Source: Gammaproteobacteria bacterium
Lineage (GTDB): Bacteria; Pseudomonadota; Gammaproteobacteria; UWMA-0217
Assembly: GCA_027081275.1 (NCBI GenBank)
Contig: JALWKV010000251.1
Location: 1-34,065, forward strand
Direction: 5' to 3'
DNA: 34,065 nt
In this document: piece after piece, positions 24,527 through 32,904 of the stretch
Layout: every line of letters starts with the position of its first letter
How positions within the stretch are numbered: position 1 is the stretch's first letter
The notes under the pieces: model-generated
Told to the model about the DNA's origin: nothing
Database searches by the model: none
What the model saw: the letters and a program-made list of their open reading frames with translations, nothing else
Translations under genes and position numbers: made by a program

Positions 24527-24616
24527 CCCCTCTCCCCGCGGGGGAGAGGGTTTGGGAGAGGGGGATAAACCATTGTTTTCACCCTCTCCCCAGCCCTCTC
24601 CCTCAAGGGAGAGGGG
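24527..24616. repeat. inverted pair of CCCTCTCCC-type intergenic repeats
   Basis: Two related copies, 24527-24564 and 24581-24616, face each other. Each is a small hairpin (CCCCTCTCCC / GGGAGAGGG) followed by a second GGGAGAGGGG block. Together they can form a long hairpin between two divergent genes. The pattern is a widespread bacterial intergenic repeat; ORFs reading through it give PSP/GEG-rich false protein. Confidence 0.8.
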
Positions 24617-25928: not shown

Positions 25929-26705
25929 ATGAGCCGCCTAGCCGCCTATATCGGCCCCGACATTGCACTGCAGGACTTGCTTCTCCACCCGCCCAACAGC
26001 CTCTACGCCCAGGCGCGGGAGTCCCGCGAGACCTTCCATATCAGCTTCAACGCCGACGGTTTCGGCGCCGGCTGGTATCAGGACAACGAGCCGCTGCGCT
26101 ACATCCAGACCTCGCCGATCTGGCATGACCGCAATCTCATCGCCCTGGCCCGCTCGCTGCGCAGCGAGCTGTGGCTGGCGGTGGTGCGTGGCAGCCACGG
26201 CAACAGCGACGCCACGCCCTACAACGCCCAGCCCTATCTGAACGATGCGCTGATGTTCATGCACGACGGCTTTGTCACCGACTTCAATCGGAACCTGAAG
26301 CCCGCCTGCCTCAGCTACCTGTCGCCGGAGATCGCCAGCGAGATCCAAGGCAACTCCGAAGCGGAATACCTCTTCGCCCTGCTGCGCCAGCGCATGGCCG
26401 ACCCGGACCGGCTCAGCGTCGAGCACGCCATTGCCGACATTCTCTCCAACCTGGAAATCTCGCTGCGCGACATCCCCTCGGTGATGAACATCGTCGTCTC
26501 GGACGGCAACCGGCTGATCGCCGCGCGCCACGCCACCTCGCACGACTGCGCCAGTCTCTACTACACCACCGACGACAAGCATTATCCCGGCGGCCAGCTG
26601 CTGGCCTCTGAACCGCTCGACGACAGCGGCAGCTGGGAGCCGGTGCTGGAAAACCACCTCGTCATTCTCGAACGCGACAAGGTGCCTCGCGTCTCCCGGA
26701 TCTGA
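25929..26705 (+). CDS. EgtC/YafJ-like class II glutamine amidotransferase homologue, catalytic Cys2 replaced by Ser
   Basis: A 258-residue Ntn-hydrolase-type protein. Its start, MSRLAAYIGPDIALQDLLL, is the family's start MCRxxAYLG with Ser at position 2 where the catalytic Cys normally stands. The GATase core is otherwise recognisable: ARESRETFHISFNADGFGAGWY (the DGFGxGWY motif), AVVRGSHGNSD, NAQPYLNDALMFMHDGFVTDF (HNG-type motif with HDG) and ASEPLDDSGSWEPVLEN at the end. Family members include EgtC of ergothioneine synthesis and uncharacterised YafJ-type hydrolases. No egtB or egtD is in the window. Ser can act as nucleophile in some Ntn hydrolases, so activity is uncertain. The next gene begins nine bases after its stop. 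Confidence 0.88.
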   Translation: MSRLAAYIGPDIALQDLLLHPPNSLYAQARESRETFHISFNADGFGAGWYQDNEPLRYIQTSPIWHDRNLIALARSLRSELWLAVVRGSHGNSDATPYNAQPYLNDALMFMHDGFVTDFNRNLKPACLSYLSPEIASEIQGNSEAEYLFALLRQRMADPDRLSVEHAIADILSNLEISLRDIPSVMNIVVSDGNRLIAARHATSHDCASLYYTTDDKHYPGGQLLASEPLDDSGSWEPVLENHLVILERDKVPRVSRI

Positions 26706-26714
26706 TCCGCATCG

Positions 26715-27794
26715 ATGCGGCGAACACAGGACATTGCCCGCGCTCGCCGCACCCCGGCGATCGCCGCGCTGTGCCTGCTGCCCCTGCTGCCCCTGATCGC
26801 CGGCCCGGGCGAGGCAACGACGCCCGACCACCTGCCGCCCATCCTGCAACAGCTCGATGAAATGGAGGGCTGGAGCGCGCCGCCGGTGGTCGACCGCTCC
26901 GCCGAGGACGACGAAGCCGAAGAAGACGAGGATGAGGACGAGGAGGAGCTCGGCGACATCAGCACCGAATTCGAACGACGCCACCAGCAAATTCTTGAAA
27001 ACCTGCAGCAGACCGCCGTCTGGCTCGACAGCTTCTTCGGCAGCGACCGCATCGACGAGAACCAGACGGCGGAGTCGGAACTACGAATCTCGTGGGAGAA
27101 TGGTTTTCTCGAGTCGGAGAACCCCAACACCCGACTGAAGATGCGCGGCAAACTCCGCCTGCCCAACATGCACTACAAGCTGCAACTGGTGTTCGAAGGC
27201 GAACCCGATGCAAATGACCTCTCGGGCCTGGATCAGGAAAACGCCAGTTCGGCGCTGCGATACAGCGTCACCCGCAACGCGCTGCGCTCGATCGACTTCG
27301 ATGTCGGCTTTCGCGGCGGCCTTTCCGATCCACGCCTGTTCACCCGACTGCGGATGCAGAAGCTGCTGCTGAACAACAGGCAACAGCTTCACCGCCTCAC
27401 CCCGGCGGTCACCTGGGACAGCCGGCTGGGCTGGGAGCTGTATGTGCGCCATGACGCCGAATTCAAGCCGCGCGACAAGCTCTTCTTCCGCGCCACGACC
27501 AAGCCTGGCTGGTCGCAGGACGCCGACGGTTACACGCTGCAACAGGACTTCACGATCTTCTACGAAGCATCACCCCACCGCTTCATCGCGCTCGACTGGC
27601 TCAACGACGCAGTCGTCCATCCCTACTCCGACCTCACCTCGCGCATTCGCGTCCGCCATCGCCGCGCACTGCGTGAGAACCAGCTCTACCTCGAATTCGC
27701 GCCGGGCCTGCGCTTCGCCGAGGAGAACGATTTCCGCACCCAGTGGGAGGGATACATCTCCCTTGAAGTGGTATTCTCGCCGCACTCGAAGTAA
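26715..27794 (+). CDS. exported protein with acidic linker, possible outer-membrane barrel
   Basis: A 359-residue protein. The first ~35 residues form a signal peptide (TPAIAALCLLPLLPLIAGPGEA). Residues 56-75 are a run of Asp/Glu (AEDDEAEEDEDEDEEEL), then a short helical region and a set of alternating beta-strand-like segments (LRISWENGFLESENP, LKMRGKLRLPNMHYKLQLVFEG, FDVGFRGGLSD, YLEFAPGLRFAEEN) ending in EGYISLEVVFSPHSK. The latter half is consistent with a beta-barrel or periplasmic beta domain, but I do not know the family. It follows the EgtC-like gene by nine bases and precedes nadC by 18, so the three may be one transcript. Confidence 0.7.
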   Translation: MRRTQDIARARRTPAIAALCLLPLLPLIAGPGEATTPDHLPPILQQLDEMEGWSAPPVVDRSAEDDEAEEDEDEDEEELGDISTEFERRHQQILENLQQTAVWLDSFFGSDRIDENQTAESELRISWENGFLESENPNTRLKMRGKLRLPNMHYKLQLVFEGEPDANDLSGLDQENASSALRYSVTRNALRSIDFDVGFRGGLSDPRLFTRLRMQKLLLNNRQQLHRLTPAVTWDSRLGWELYVRHDAEFKPRDKLFFRATTKPGWSQDADGYTLQQDFTIFYEASPHRFIALDWLNDAVVHPYSDLTSRIRVRHRRALRENQLYLEFAPGLRFAEENDFRTQWEGYISLEVVFSPHSK

Positions 27795-27812: not shown

Positions 27813-28643
27813 ATGAATCTTCTGCAGGATCTGGAACAGAACGTCCGCATCGCGCTGGCCGAGGACATCGGCGCCGGCGATGTCACCGCCAGCCTGATTC
27901 CGGCCAAGGCGACGGCATCCGCGACCGTGCTGCTGCGCGAAGAGGCGGTCGTCTGCGGCCGTCCGTGGTTCGATGAGGTATTCCGCCAGATCGACCCCGC
28001 CATCGACATCGAATGGCAGGTGGAGGAAGGCCGCCGCGAACGGGCCGATACCATCCTCTGCCGTCTCCGGGGCAACGCCCGCCACCTGCTCGCCGGCGAG
28101 AGAGCGGCGCTGAACTTCCTGCAACTGCTGTCCGGCACCGCCACAACGACCCGGCGCTACGCCGACGCGCTGGCGGGCCTGACGACGCAGGTGTTCGATA
28201 CCCGCAAGACCGTTCCGGGGCTGAGGCTGGCGCAGAAGTACGCGGTGGCGACCGGCGGCGGACGCAACCACCGCATCGGGCTCTACGACCAAGTGCTCAT
28301 CAAGGAAAACCATATCGCCGCCGCCGGCTCGATCACGCAGGCCGTGGCCAACGCCGTGGCCCGCTATCCCGAGCTGCTGGTGGAAGTGGAGACGGAAAAC
28401 CTCGACGAGTTCGAGGAAGCGCTCGTCACCGGCGCCCATGTCATCATGCTGGACAACTTCAGCCTCGACGAAATGCGGCGCGCGGTCGAGATGAACGCCG
28501 GCCGAAAAAAGCTCGAGGTCTCCGGGAATGTCACCCTCGACACCATCCGCGATATCGCCCTGACCGGGGTCGACTACATTTCCAGCGGTGCGCTGACGAA
28601 AGACGTGAAGAGCATCGACCTTTCGATGCGCTTCACAGCCTGA
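27813..28643 (+). CDS. nadC: quinolinate phosphoribosyltransferase
   Basis: A 276-residue enzyme that condenses quinolinate with PRPP to give nicotinate mononucleotide in NAD synthesis. The family marks are EDIGAGDVTASLIP near residue 16, ARHLLAGERAALNFLQLLSGTAT, TRKTVPGLRLAQKYAVATGGG, HRIGLYDQVLIKENH and the C-terminal VSGNVTLDTIRDIALTGVDYIS. The catalytic Arg, Lys and Glu residues of these motifs are in place. It stands apart from nadA and nadB, which is common. A perfect palindrome lies 35 bases after the stop. Confidence 0.96.
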   Translation: MNLLQDLEQNVRIALAEDIGAGDVTASLIPAKATASATVLLREEAVVCGRPWFDEVFRQIDPAIDIEWQVEEGRRERADTILCRLRGNARHLLAGERAALNFLQLLSGTATTTRRYADALAGLTTQVFDTRKTVPGLRLAQKYAVATGGGRNHRIGLYDQVLIKENHIAAAGSITQAVANAVARYPELLVEVETENLDEFEEALVTGAHVIMLDNFSLDEMRRAVEMNAGRKKLEVSGNVTLDTIRDIALTGVDYISSGALTKDVKSIDLSMRFTA

Positions 28644-28892: not shown

Positions 28893-29600
28893 ATGAACGC
28901 ACTGATCAGACGCGCACTCCCCCTGGCCATCGCATCCGGATTCGCTCTTTCGGCGAGCAGCGCCATGGCGATCGATATCGGCCTCGGCGCCAAGGCGGGC
29001 ACCCAGGGTTATGGACTGGATCTCAGCGCCGGCATCACTCCCAAGCTCAACGTGCGCGGCGGCTTCACGCAGTTCAGCTTCAGCTATGACGGCGAGCTGG
29101 AACAAGATACGTCGGCTGGCGGCGCCAGCATCAACAGCGCAGCCACCTACTCGACGACGTTCGACTTCAACACCGTCGCGCTGCTGGTGGACTACCACCC
29201 CTTCGCCTCGGGTTTCCGCCTGACGACCGGCGCCATGCTCAACAACAGCAAATTGCACGGTGCGGCAATAGCCGGCGACCAGACGATCGAGATCGGCAAC
29301 TACACTTCCACCCAAGGTGCGGACCTGCGCGCCGATGTCACCATCACCTTCCCCAAGACGGCGCCCTATCTCGGCATCGGCTACGACTCGTCGCGCTACT
29401 CGAAGAGCGGGTTCAGCTTCACCTACGACCTCGGGGTGATGTTCCAGGGCGAACCGACGGCGAAGGTTGAACTTTCAGGCGCGGACGCGAGCCAAGTGCC
29501 ACAGGAGGATCTCGATCGCGAGGTGGCGTCGGTGAACGAGACACTGTCCGATTTCACCATCTACCCGGTGATGAACCTCGGCCTCAGCTACACGTTCTGA
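28893..29600 (+). CDS. outer-membrane beta-barrel candidate
   Basis: A 235-residue exported protein. Residues 1-26 are a signal peptide (ASGFALSASSAMA). The mature chain has alternating amphipathic strands with aromatic ends (GYGLDLSAGITPKLNVRGGF, FSFSYDGELEQ, TTFDFNTVALLVDYHPF, SGFRLTTGAML) and ends in MNLGLSYTF, the terminal-Phe signal used by the BAM machinery. It is most like small uncharacterised OmpW/OmpA-type barrel proteins. AAGGTGA precedes the ATG. It is convergent with the downstream gene, with a hairpin between them. Confidence 0.85.
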   Translation: MNALIRRALPLAIASGFALSASSAMAIDIGLGAKAGTQGYGLDLSAGITPKLNVRGGFTQFSFSYDGELEQDTSAGGASINSAATYSTTFDFNTVALLVDYHPFASGFRLTTGAMLNNSKLHGAAIAGDQTIEIGNYTSTQGADLRADVTITFPKTAPYLGIGYDSSRYSKSGFSFTYDLGVMFQGEPTAKVELSGADASQVPQEDLDREVASVNETLSDFTIYPVMNLGLSYTF

Positions 29601-32088: not shown

Positions 32089-32904
32089 CTACTCGAACAG
32101 ATTCGACGGCGCCGGGAAATCTCCCGTCCTGACGGCGGCGACATAGGCCCGCACCGCATCCTGTATCGAGGCCTGCCCTTCCATAAAGTTCCTGACGAAC
32201 CCCGGCGCCCTGCCGGGCGTAATACCGAGTATGTCCTGCAGCACCAGAATCTGGCCATCACAGCCGGCGCTGGCGCCGATGCCGATCACCGGGATCTCCA
32301 GCGCGGCCGTGATCTCGTCGGCCAGCCGCGCCGGCACACACTCGAGCAACAGCACATCGGCGCCGGCCTGCTGCAGCGCCACGGCGTCGCGGATCATCGC
32401 CTCGGCCTGCTCGGGATCACGCCCCTGAACGCGGTAGCCGCCGAGCTTGTGCACCAGCTGCGGCTGCAGGCCGATATGTGCGCAGACCGGCACACCATGC
32501 TCGGCCAGCTTGCTGACGACCTCGACCTGCCGGGCATCGCCCTCCAGCTTGACCATCTGCGCGCCGCCCTCCTGCATCAGCCGGGCCGCCGACGCCATCG
32601 CCTGCTCCGTCGAGGTGTAGCTCATGAACGGCATATCCGCCATCAGCAGCGCGCGGCGACAGCGGCTGGCGACGGCGCGGCTGTGATAGACGATGTCATC
32701 GACCGTCACCGGCACCGTGGTCTCGCGCCCCTGCACCACCATGCCGAGCGAATCGCCCACCAGCATCACGTCCACCCCCGCCTCGTCGAGCACCGCCGCG
32801 AAGCTGGCGTCATAGGCGGTCAGACAGGCGATTTTCTCGCCCTCGGCCTTCATCCGGCGCAGGGTCGAAACGGTGACGTGGCGGCTTGTTGCGTGGACAC
32901 TCAT
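32089..32904 (-). CDS. panB: ketopantoate hydroxymethyltransferase
   Basis: A 271-residue enzyme that makes ketopantoate from 2-oxoisovalerate and methylene-tetrahydrofolate. The N-terminal TVSTLRRMKAEGEKIACLTAYDASFA and VMLVGDSLGMVVQGR carry the metal-binding Asp residues of the family. VCAHIGLQPQ, ECVPARLADEI and GIGASAGCDGQILVLQD follow in the usual order. It lies between the deoxynucleoside kinase gene (nine bases upstream) and panC, all on the minus strand. Confidence 0.96.
   Translation of the reverse strand: MSVHATSRHVTVSTLRRMKAEGEKIACLTAYDASFAAVLDEAGVDVMLVGDSLGMVVQGRETTVPVTVDDIVYHSRAVASRCRRALLMADMPFMSYTSTEQAMASAARLMQEGGAQMVKLEGDARQVEVVSKLAEHGVPVCAHIGLQPQLVHKLGGYRVQGRDPEQAEAMIRDAVALQQAGADVLLLECVPARLADEITAALEIPVIGIGASAGCDGQILVLQDILGITPGRAPGFVRNFMEGQASIQDAVRAYVAAVRTGDFPAPSNLFE

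What the first reader, a model, noticed from the sequence alone, without database searches (positions are those of the whole stretch)
25929..26705. EgtC/YafJ-like amidotransferase with Ser in place of the catalytic Cys2
The second codon is AGC, giving MSRLAAYIG where the family has MCR. The rest of the glutaminase fold is well kept, including the DGFGAGWY and HDG-type motifs. Cys2 is the N-terminal nucleophile of class II amidotransferases. Either the protein is a binding or regulatory relic, or it is an Ntn hydrolase that uses Ser. No ergothioneine genes are nearby, and it is packed nine bases from an exported protein of unknown function.
Basis: partly seen in the sequence, partly recalled or inferred. 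Interest (0 to 1): 0.6.

Follow-up and report, generated by a model that had tools for sequence, protein, structure and literature searches.

The report
Dead EgtC outliving ergothioneine pathway
This gene descends from EgtC, the enzyme that trims a glutamate during ergothioneine synthesis; the bacterium appears to have lost the rest of that pathway and the enzyme has lost its catalytic residues, yet selection keeps the protein intact, which suggests it now does a different, non-catalytic job.

Summary
ORF 25929-26705 encodes a 258-aa EgtC-like class II glutaminase starting MSRLAAYIG; ATG 25929 is the only ATG/GTG/TTG start in frame. Ser2 is shared by a second species (84% identity); a third genome of the family has Gly2, a fourth Cys2; all other homologues sampled but one (Ala2) have Cys2. 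The gene is EgtC by position: intact relatives have PhoRB-EgtD divergent from EgtC-EgtB...NadC; here it is AT-exported barrel-NadC. EgtB and EgtD are undetectable in all five genomes of the family. dN/dS against the sister species is 0.09, tighter than neighbouring nadC (0.16). Best reading: an EgtC-derived pseudoenzyme, orphaned by pathway loss and kept for a non-catalytic role; a Ser-nucleophile hydrolase is unlikely. Active-site loss recurs: 5 of 11 EgtC homologues without an adjacent EgtB are broken (three lineages), against 0 of 38 with one. Five orphans in three other families are followed by a KefB/C-type antiporter gene. The molecular role is not shown.

The parts
25929..26705 (+). EgtC-derived class II glutaminase homologue (258 aa), catalytically degenerate
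   Evidence: ORF and start; GATase_4 and TIGR03442; best fold match EgtC; dN/dS 0.09 against G001
25932..25934 (+). Codon 2, AGC = Ser in place of the N-terminal nucleophile Cys
   Evidence: AGC also in G001, GGG in G003, TGC in G004; Cys in 51 of 55 aligned homologues
26187..26198 (+). R87-G-S-H90 segment; family RSAT. Arg kept, Thr90 lost (H here, I in G001, R in G003)
26265..26267 (+). D113 of HDG; family Asn of HNG (oxyanion/thioester network)
   Evidence: N in all 38 homologues with adjacent EgtB; D, D, E in G000, G001, G003
26358..26360 (+). E144, family Asp of TDSE (mild change; Glu also in two otherwise intact homologues)
26715..27794 (+). Exported protein, predicted outer-membrane beta-barrel, no Pfam family; adjacent to this gene in four genomes of the family
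27813..28643 (+). nadC, quinolinate phosphoribosyltransferase; the syntenic anchor shared with intact egtC loci
   Evidence: TIGR00078, 307 bits; synteny

Best explanation
The gene is the positional orthologue of egtC. Intact relatives carry phoRB-egtD divergent from egtC-egtB, with nadC a few kilobases on. In this family egtB and egtD were lost and the egtC gene stayed, now followed by an outer-membrane barrel gene and nadC. In the common ancestor of this genus and its sister genus (G003), after G004 split off, the N-terminal Cys was lost (now Ser or Gly), together with the Asn of the HNG motif (now Asp or Glu) and the Thr of the RSAT segment. The protein should therefore neither form nor stabilise the gamma-glutamyl thioester and should not be a glutaminase or gamma-glutamyl hydrolase. 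It still folds as an Ntn glutaminase and is kept under strong purifying selection, so it most likely acts as a cytoplasmic binding, regulatory or scaffolding pseudoenzyme. Shown: sequence changes, synteny, non-detection of egtB/egtD, selection, predicted fold. Inferred: loss of catalysis. Not shown: ligand or partner; my best guess is recognition of a glutamyl or amino-acid-like ligand, or of a protein partner, through the old pocket.
For: Residues 2/87/90/113/114/144 read SRHDGE here, SRIDGE in G001, GRREGD in G003, against CRTNGD in 35 of 38 homologues with adjacent EgtB. Tree puts G004 (Cys2) outside G003+(G000,G001), support 100/98. EgtB and EgtD not found in any of the five genomes of the family, found in most other carriers; no remnant at E<=1 in the fetched loci. 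Synteny with PhoRB and NadC. dN/dS 0.089 against G001, below nadC 0.160, the barrel 0.128 and the CarO-like OMP 0.151. Model pLDDT 93, EgtC best match, Z 32. Broken active sites occur in 5 of 11 homologues without and 0 of 38 with adjacent EgtB, Fisher p 2.4e-4 ignoring relatedness. Title of 4ZFL: EgtC C2A with natural substrate, so a Cys-less EgtC can bind ligand.
Against: No activity or binding data. R87, H112, G114 and the fold are kept, so residual or changed chemistry cannot be excluded. All genomes of the family are draft assemblies (150-670 contigs), so a missed egtB/egtD in one is possible, though not likely in all five. dS is near 1, so dN/dS is approximate, and only one close pair exists.
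Confidence: 0.75

Rival explanations
1. It is an active Ntn hydrolase that uses Ser2 as nucleophile, as penicillin G acylases do, with a new substrate; D113 and H90 belong to a remodelled active site.
For: Ser2, D113 and E144 are shared by two species; Met removal before Ser is expected (general knowledge); Ser is a known Ntn nucleophile in penicillin G acylases (PMC9140057); the gene is under purifying selection.
Against: The sister genome with the same gene order has Gly2 and Glu113. An acidic residue at the Asn of the oxyanion/thioester network should oppose a tetrahedral oxyanion (inference from the network in PMC6748925). Class II amidotransferases are listed with Cys only.
Confidence: 0.08
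2. It is a decaying relic of the ergothioneine pathway without function, caught before it is lost.
For: Pathway partners are not detected; active-site residues degraded; in G150, a separate case, dN/dS against congeners is 0.42 against 0.10 between them.
Against: dN/dS 0.089, lower than nadC; 84% identity over the full length with no stop or indel; intact in three genomes separated by up to 46% divergence.
Confidence: 0.07
3. It works with its neighbour: the AT-barrel pair (or AT-NadC) is a functional unit in which the cytoplasmic protein regulates envelope or NAD metabolism; in other families an orphan EgtC regulates a KefB/C-type antiporter in the same way.
For: AT and the barrel are adjacent in G000, G001, G003 and G004, with gaps under about 10 bases where the start is clear. 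Orphan EgtC homologues in G058, G150, G261, G356 and G329 are each followed by a CPA2 antiporter with TrkA domains.
Against: A protein without signal peptide cannot directly touch a mature outer-membrane barrel. The barrel occurs without AT elsewhere, next to NadC in two genomes of family f131. No co-expression or interaction data; adjacency may only reflect loss of the genes between.
Confidence: 0.1

Closest known systems
EgtC, gamma-glutamyl hydrolase of ergothioneine synthesis (TIGR03442; PDB 4ZFJ, 4ZFK, 4ZFL, Mycobacterium smegmatis)
   Same: Fold (Z 32, 225 residues, 1.6 A), full-length profile match, and gene position relative to PhoRB and NadC of intact egtD-egtC-egtB loci.
   Different: No Cys2, no HNG Asn, no Thr90; score below the equivalog cut-off; no EgtB or EgtD detected in the genome.
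Class II (PurF-type) glutamine amidotransferase domains such as GlmS, PurF, AsnB
   Same: Ntn fold and the Arg and Gly of the glutamine site.
   Different: Standalone, lacking the nucleophile and the network Asn; no synthase domain.
EgtC C2A mutant (4ZFL)
   Same: A Cys-less EgtC; the entry title reports it with natural substrate, a man-made parallel for binding without catalysis.
   Different: There only Cys is changed; here further pocket residues are changed and the change is natural.
Inactive Ntn-fold proteins such as the proteasome subunits listed as inactive in PMC9140057
   Same: Ntn fold kept for a non-catalytic role.
   Different: Different Ntn family, structural role inside a particle.

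Membership tests
EgtC (ergothioneine biosynthesis amidohydrolase) | N-terminal Cys2 nucleophile | tested here: not met
   Ser2 (AGC) here and in G001, Gly2 in G003
EgtC (ergothioneine biosynthesis amidohydrolase) | HNG oxyanion/thioester motif | tested here: not met
   HDG here; HNG in all 38 homologues with adjacent EgtB
EgtC (ergothioneine biosynthesis amidohydrolase) | TIGR03442 equivalog score at or above cut-off | tested here: not met
   181.4 against 218.65; weak test, since an EgtC flanked by EgtB and EgtD scores 217.4
EgtC (ergothioneine biosynthesis amidohydrolase) | EgtB and EgtD in the genome | tested here: not met
   No hit at E<=1e-5 in G000-G004; draft genomes
EgtC (ergothioneine biosynthesis amidohydrolase) | Descent from the egtC locus (fold, phylogeny, synteny) | tested here: met
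EgtC (ergothioneine biosynthesis amidohydrolase) | Hydrolysis of the gamma-glutamyl sulfoxide intermediate | not testable with these tools
   needs an enzyme assay
Ntn hydrolase with Ser nucleophile | Ser at residue 2 conserved through the clade | tested here: not met
   Conserved in two species of the genus, Gly in the sister genus
Ntn hydrolase with Ser nucleophile | Ser-dependent amide hydrolysis | not testable with these tools
   needs an enzyme assay
Pseudoenzyme (catalytic residues lost, fold and selection kept) | Catalytic residues lost | tested here: met
   C2, T90, N113
Pseudoenzyme (catalytic residues lost, fold and selection kept) | Retained by purifying selection | tested here: met
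   dN/dS 0.089 against G001, lower than nadC; one close pair only
Pseudoenzyme (catalytic residues lost, fold and selection kept) | Demonstrated non-catalytic role | not testable with these tools
   ligand and partner unknown

The most novel reading that the evidence does not exclude
EgtC has been turned repeatedly, in several gammaproteobacterial lineages, from an ergothioneine-pathway hydrolase into a pathway-independent regulatory protein: here into a Ser/Gly2 pseudoenzyme beside an outer-membrane barrel gene, and in other families into the cytoplasmic partner of a KefB/C-type cation:proton antiporter, where it would sense gamma-glutamyl compounds such as glutathione.
Probability: 0.2. Interest if true: 0.75.

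Novelty: new variant of a known kind. Interest (0 to 1): 0.5.

Why it matters
A gene annotated EgtC is taken as a sign of ergothioneine synthesis. This family shows that such a gene can persist under strong selection with no detectable pathway and no intact active site, so the annotation misleads, and the EgtC fold must have a second use. The pairing of orphan EgtC homologues with KefB/C-like antiporters makes that use testable: glutathione gates Kef systems (general knowledge), and EgtC's substrate is a gamma-glutamyl-cysteine conjugate.

Tried and rejected
Alternative start: no ATG/GTG/TTG upstream in frame before the TAA. Sequencing error: two species agree. Remnants of egtB/egtD in the window or sister loci: none at E<=1. 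G002 as evidence of gene loss: rejected, because its copy of the barrel gene is cut by the contig end where this gene would lie. EgtC-barrel partnership outside the family: none found; the barrel occurs without this gene in family f131. Promoter and terminator scan: nothing above chance. Order of G329: only one of six genomes carries the gene, so persistence of that broken copy could not be tested. Literature: no held paper links EgtC with KefC; the EgtC structure paper, looked up under a DOI recalled from memory, is not held. No Ser-for-Cys precedent in class II amidotransferases turned up in one search.

Full report
OBSERVATION. The ORF at 25929-26705 (+) translates to a 258-aa protein starting MSRLAAYIG. 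Codon 2 is AGC. An in-frame TAA lies 14 codons upstream with no ATG, GTG or TTG in between, so the start is the only one of those codons available. The gene is 9 bases from a downstream ORF with a hydrophobic N-terminal segment (26715-27794), followed by nadC at 27813.

WHAT THE PROTEIN IS. Pfam GATase_4; NCBIfam EgtC TIGR03442 over residues 1-252 at 181 bits against an equivalog cut-off of 218.65; PDB sequence hits to 3MDN and to EgtC 4ZFJ/4ZFK/4ZFL. An AlphaFold model from 49 aligned homologues has mean pLDDT 93 and matches EgtC best: Z 32, 225 residues, 1.6 A, above 3MDN (26) and GlmS (25). The sub-threshold TIGR03442 score alone means little: the EgtC of G051, flanked by both EgtB and EgtD, scores 217.4.

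IS SER2 CONSERVED? The order holds five genomes in the collection. The other species of the genus (G001, 84% identity) has Ser2; G003 (54%) has Gly2; G004 (about 50%) has Cys2. G002 has no hit, but its copy of the downstream gene is cut by a contig end, so that absence is uninformative. Of the other homologues collected, one (G150, another family) has Ala2 and the rest have Cys2. The protein tree puts G004 outside G003+(G000,G001) with support 100/98, so Cys2 was probably lost once, before the two genera parted, and the position has since become Ser or Gly.

MORE THAN ONE LESION. At positions 2/87/90/113/114/144 the 38 homologues with an adjacent EgtB read CRTNGD (35), CRTNGE (2) or CRSNGD (1). 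This protein reads SRHDGE, G001 SRIDGE, G003 GRREGD, G004 CRTNGD. In human asparagine synthetase the network Arg-48, Val-52, Asn-74, Gly-75, Glu-76, Asp-96 mediates substrate recognition and thioester stabilisation (PMC6748925). In the sequence alignment to EgtC, R87, D113-G114 and E144 fall on Arg, Asn-Gly and Asp; that these are the equivalents of the synthetase residues is my inference from the shared fold. Asp to Glu at 144 is mild, as it occurs in two otherwise intact homologues.

EgtC BY POSITION. In intact relatives the gene is divergent from egtD and directly upstream of egtB, commonly with phoB/phoR beyond egtD and nadC a few kilobases downstream. G003 has phoR-phoB divergent from AT-barrel-nadC; G004 has a Ppx/GppA-like ORF (named from sequence, not searched) divergent from AT-barrel, with nadC further on. 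Hence the gene is the egtC of that locus with its partners removed. EgtD and EgtB queries from G051 found nothing in the five genomes of the order at E<=1e-5 but found homologues in most other carriers. No remnant is visible in the fetched loci at E<=1.

SELECTION. Between G000 and G001, dN/dS (NG86) is 0.089 for this gene, against 0.160 for nadC, 0.128 for the barrel, 0.151 for the CarO-like OMP and 0.109 for panB (32089-32904); differences by codon position are 0.109, 0.078 and 0.415. dS is about 1, so the ratio is approximate, but the comparison with neighbours is direct. The gene is kept, not decaying.

RECURRENCE. In 369 genomes sampled evenly across the class, 49 carry a homologue at E<=1e-40. 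Of these, 38 have an adjacent EgtB and none has lost Cys2 or the HNG Asn; 11 have none adjacent and 5 have lost one or both, in three lineages: this family (three genomes), G150 (Ala2, HAG, NADGFG lost) and G329 (Cys2 kept, but R3E, NADGFG lost, HCG, TASE). Fisher p is 2.4e-4, ignoring relatedness. G150 and its congeners G261 and G356 have no EgtB or EgtD hit; G329, G058 and G359 have homologues elsewhere in the genome. Type II EgtBs that use cysteine and need no EgtC are known (PMC11993508); whether those distant EgtBs are of that type was not tested.

SECOND ASSOCIATION. The orphan EgtC homologues of G058, G150, G261, G356 and G329 (three families) are each followed by a CPA2 antiporter gene; the three read in full have Na_H_Exchanger, TrkA_N and TrkA_C domains, and the one scanned in NCBIfam scores highest with KefC/KefB models, below their cut-offs. 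In G261 and G356 only the first part of that gene is seen before the contig ends. Two of those five EgtC copies are broken. In the present family the downstream gene is instead a predicted outer-membrane beta-barrel (mean pLDDT 81; Foldseek matches are porins at TM 0.3-0.46), of a family without a Pfam model that occurs in 30 of 369 sampled genomes, mostly apart from this gene.

MECHANISM. Most likely a cytoplasmic pseudoenzyme. Shown: sequence changes, synteny, non-detection of partner genes, purifying selection, predicted fold. Inferred: no catalysis, since nucleophile, network Asn and pocket Thr are gone. Not shown: ligand or partner. A Ser-nucleophile hydrolase is disfavoured because the sister with the same gene order has Gly2 and an acidic residue at 113. 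A dying relic is disfavoured by the low dN/dS. The title of PDB entry 4ZFL (EgtC C2A with natural substrate) indicates that loss of Cys alone does not abolish binding, so a binding role is plausible.

VERDICT. No experiment supports a specific function.

Noticed in passing
L024:6210-9059, L111:5997-8787, L112:6327-9072, ends of L105 and L106: Orphan EgtC homologues in three other gammaproteobacterial families are followed, 35-100 bases on in the three full cases, by a KefB/C-type CPA2 antiporter gene; two of the five EgtC copies have broken active sites.
   Followed up: partly
window 26715-27794: Exported predicted outer-membrane beta-barrel with a WLDxFF motif; no Pfam family, yet relatives in 30 of 369 gammaproteobacterial genomes sampled.
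   Followed up: partly
window 28893-29600: Outer-membrane protein with weak similarity to the ornithine porin CarO (35.6 bits, cut-off 300).
   Followed up: no
window 24535-24609: Imperfect inverted repeat, 34-base arms 79% complementary with a 7-base loop, in the intergenic stretch; looks like a dispersed palindromic element, not tested.
   Followed up: no
L027:5517-6677: The EgtB next to intact EgtC scores higher with the selenoneine synthase SenA model (281 bits) than with EgtB (265), both below cut-off, so its product (ergothioneine or a related compound) is not settled by annotation.
   Followed up: no
residue 127 region, window 26307-26318: A CLxY motif (C127, L128, Y130) plus R57, H66, R155, D170, R180 and T203 is shared by all four homologues of this family and is rare elsewhere: a family-specific change that predates the loss of Cys2.
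   Followed up: no
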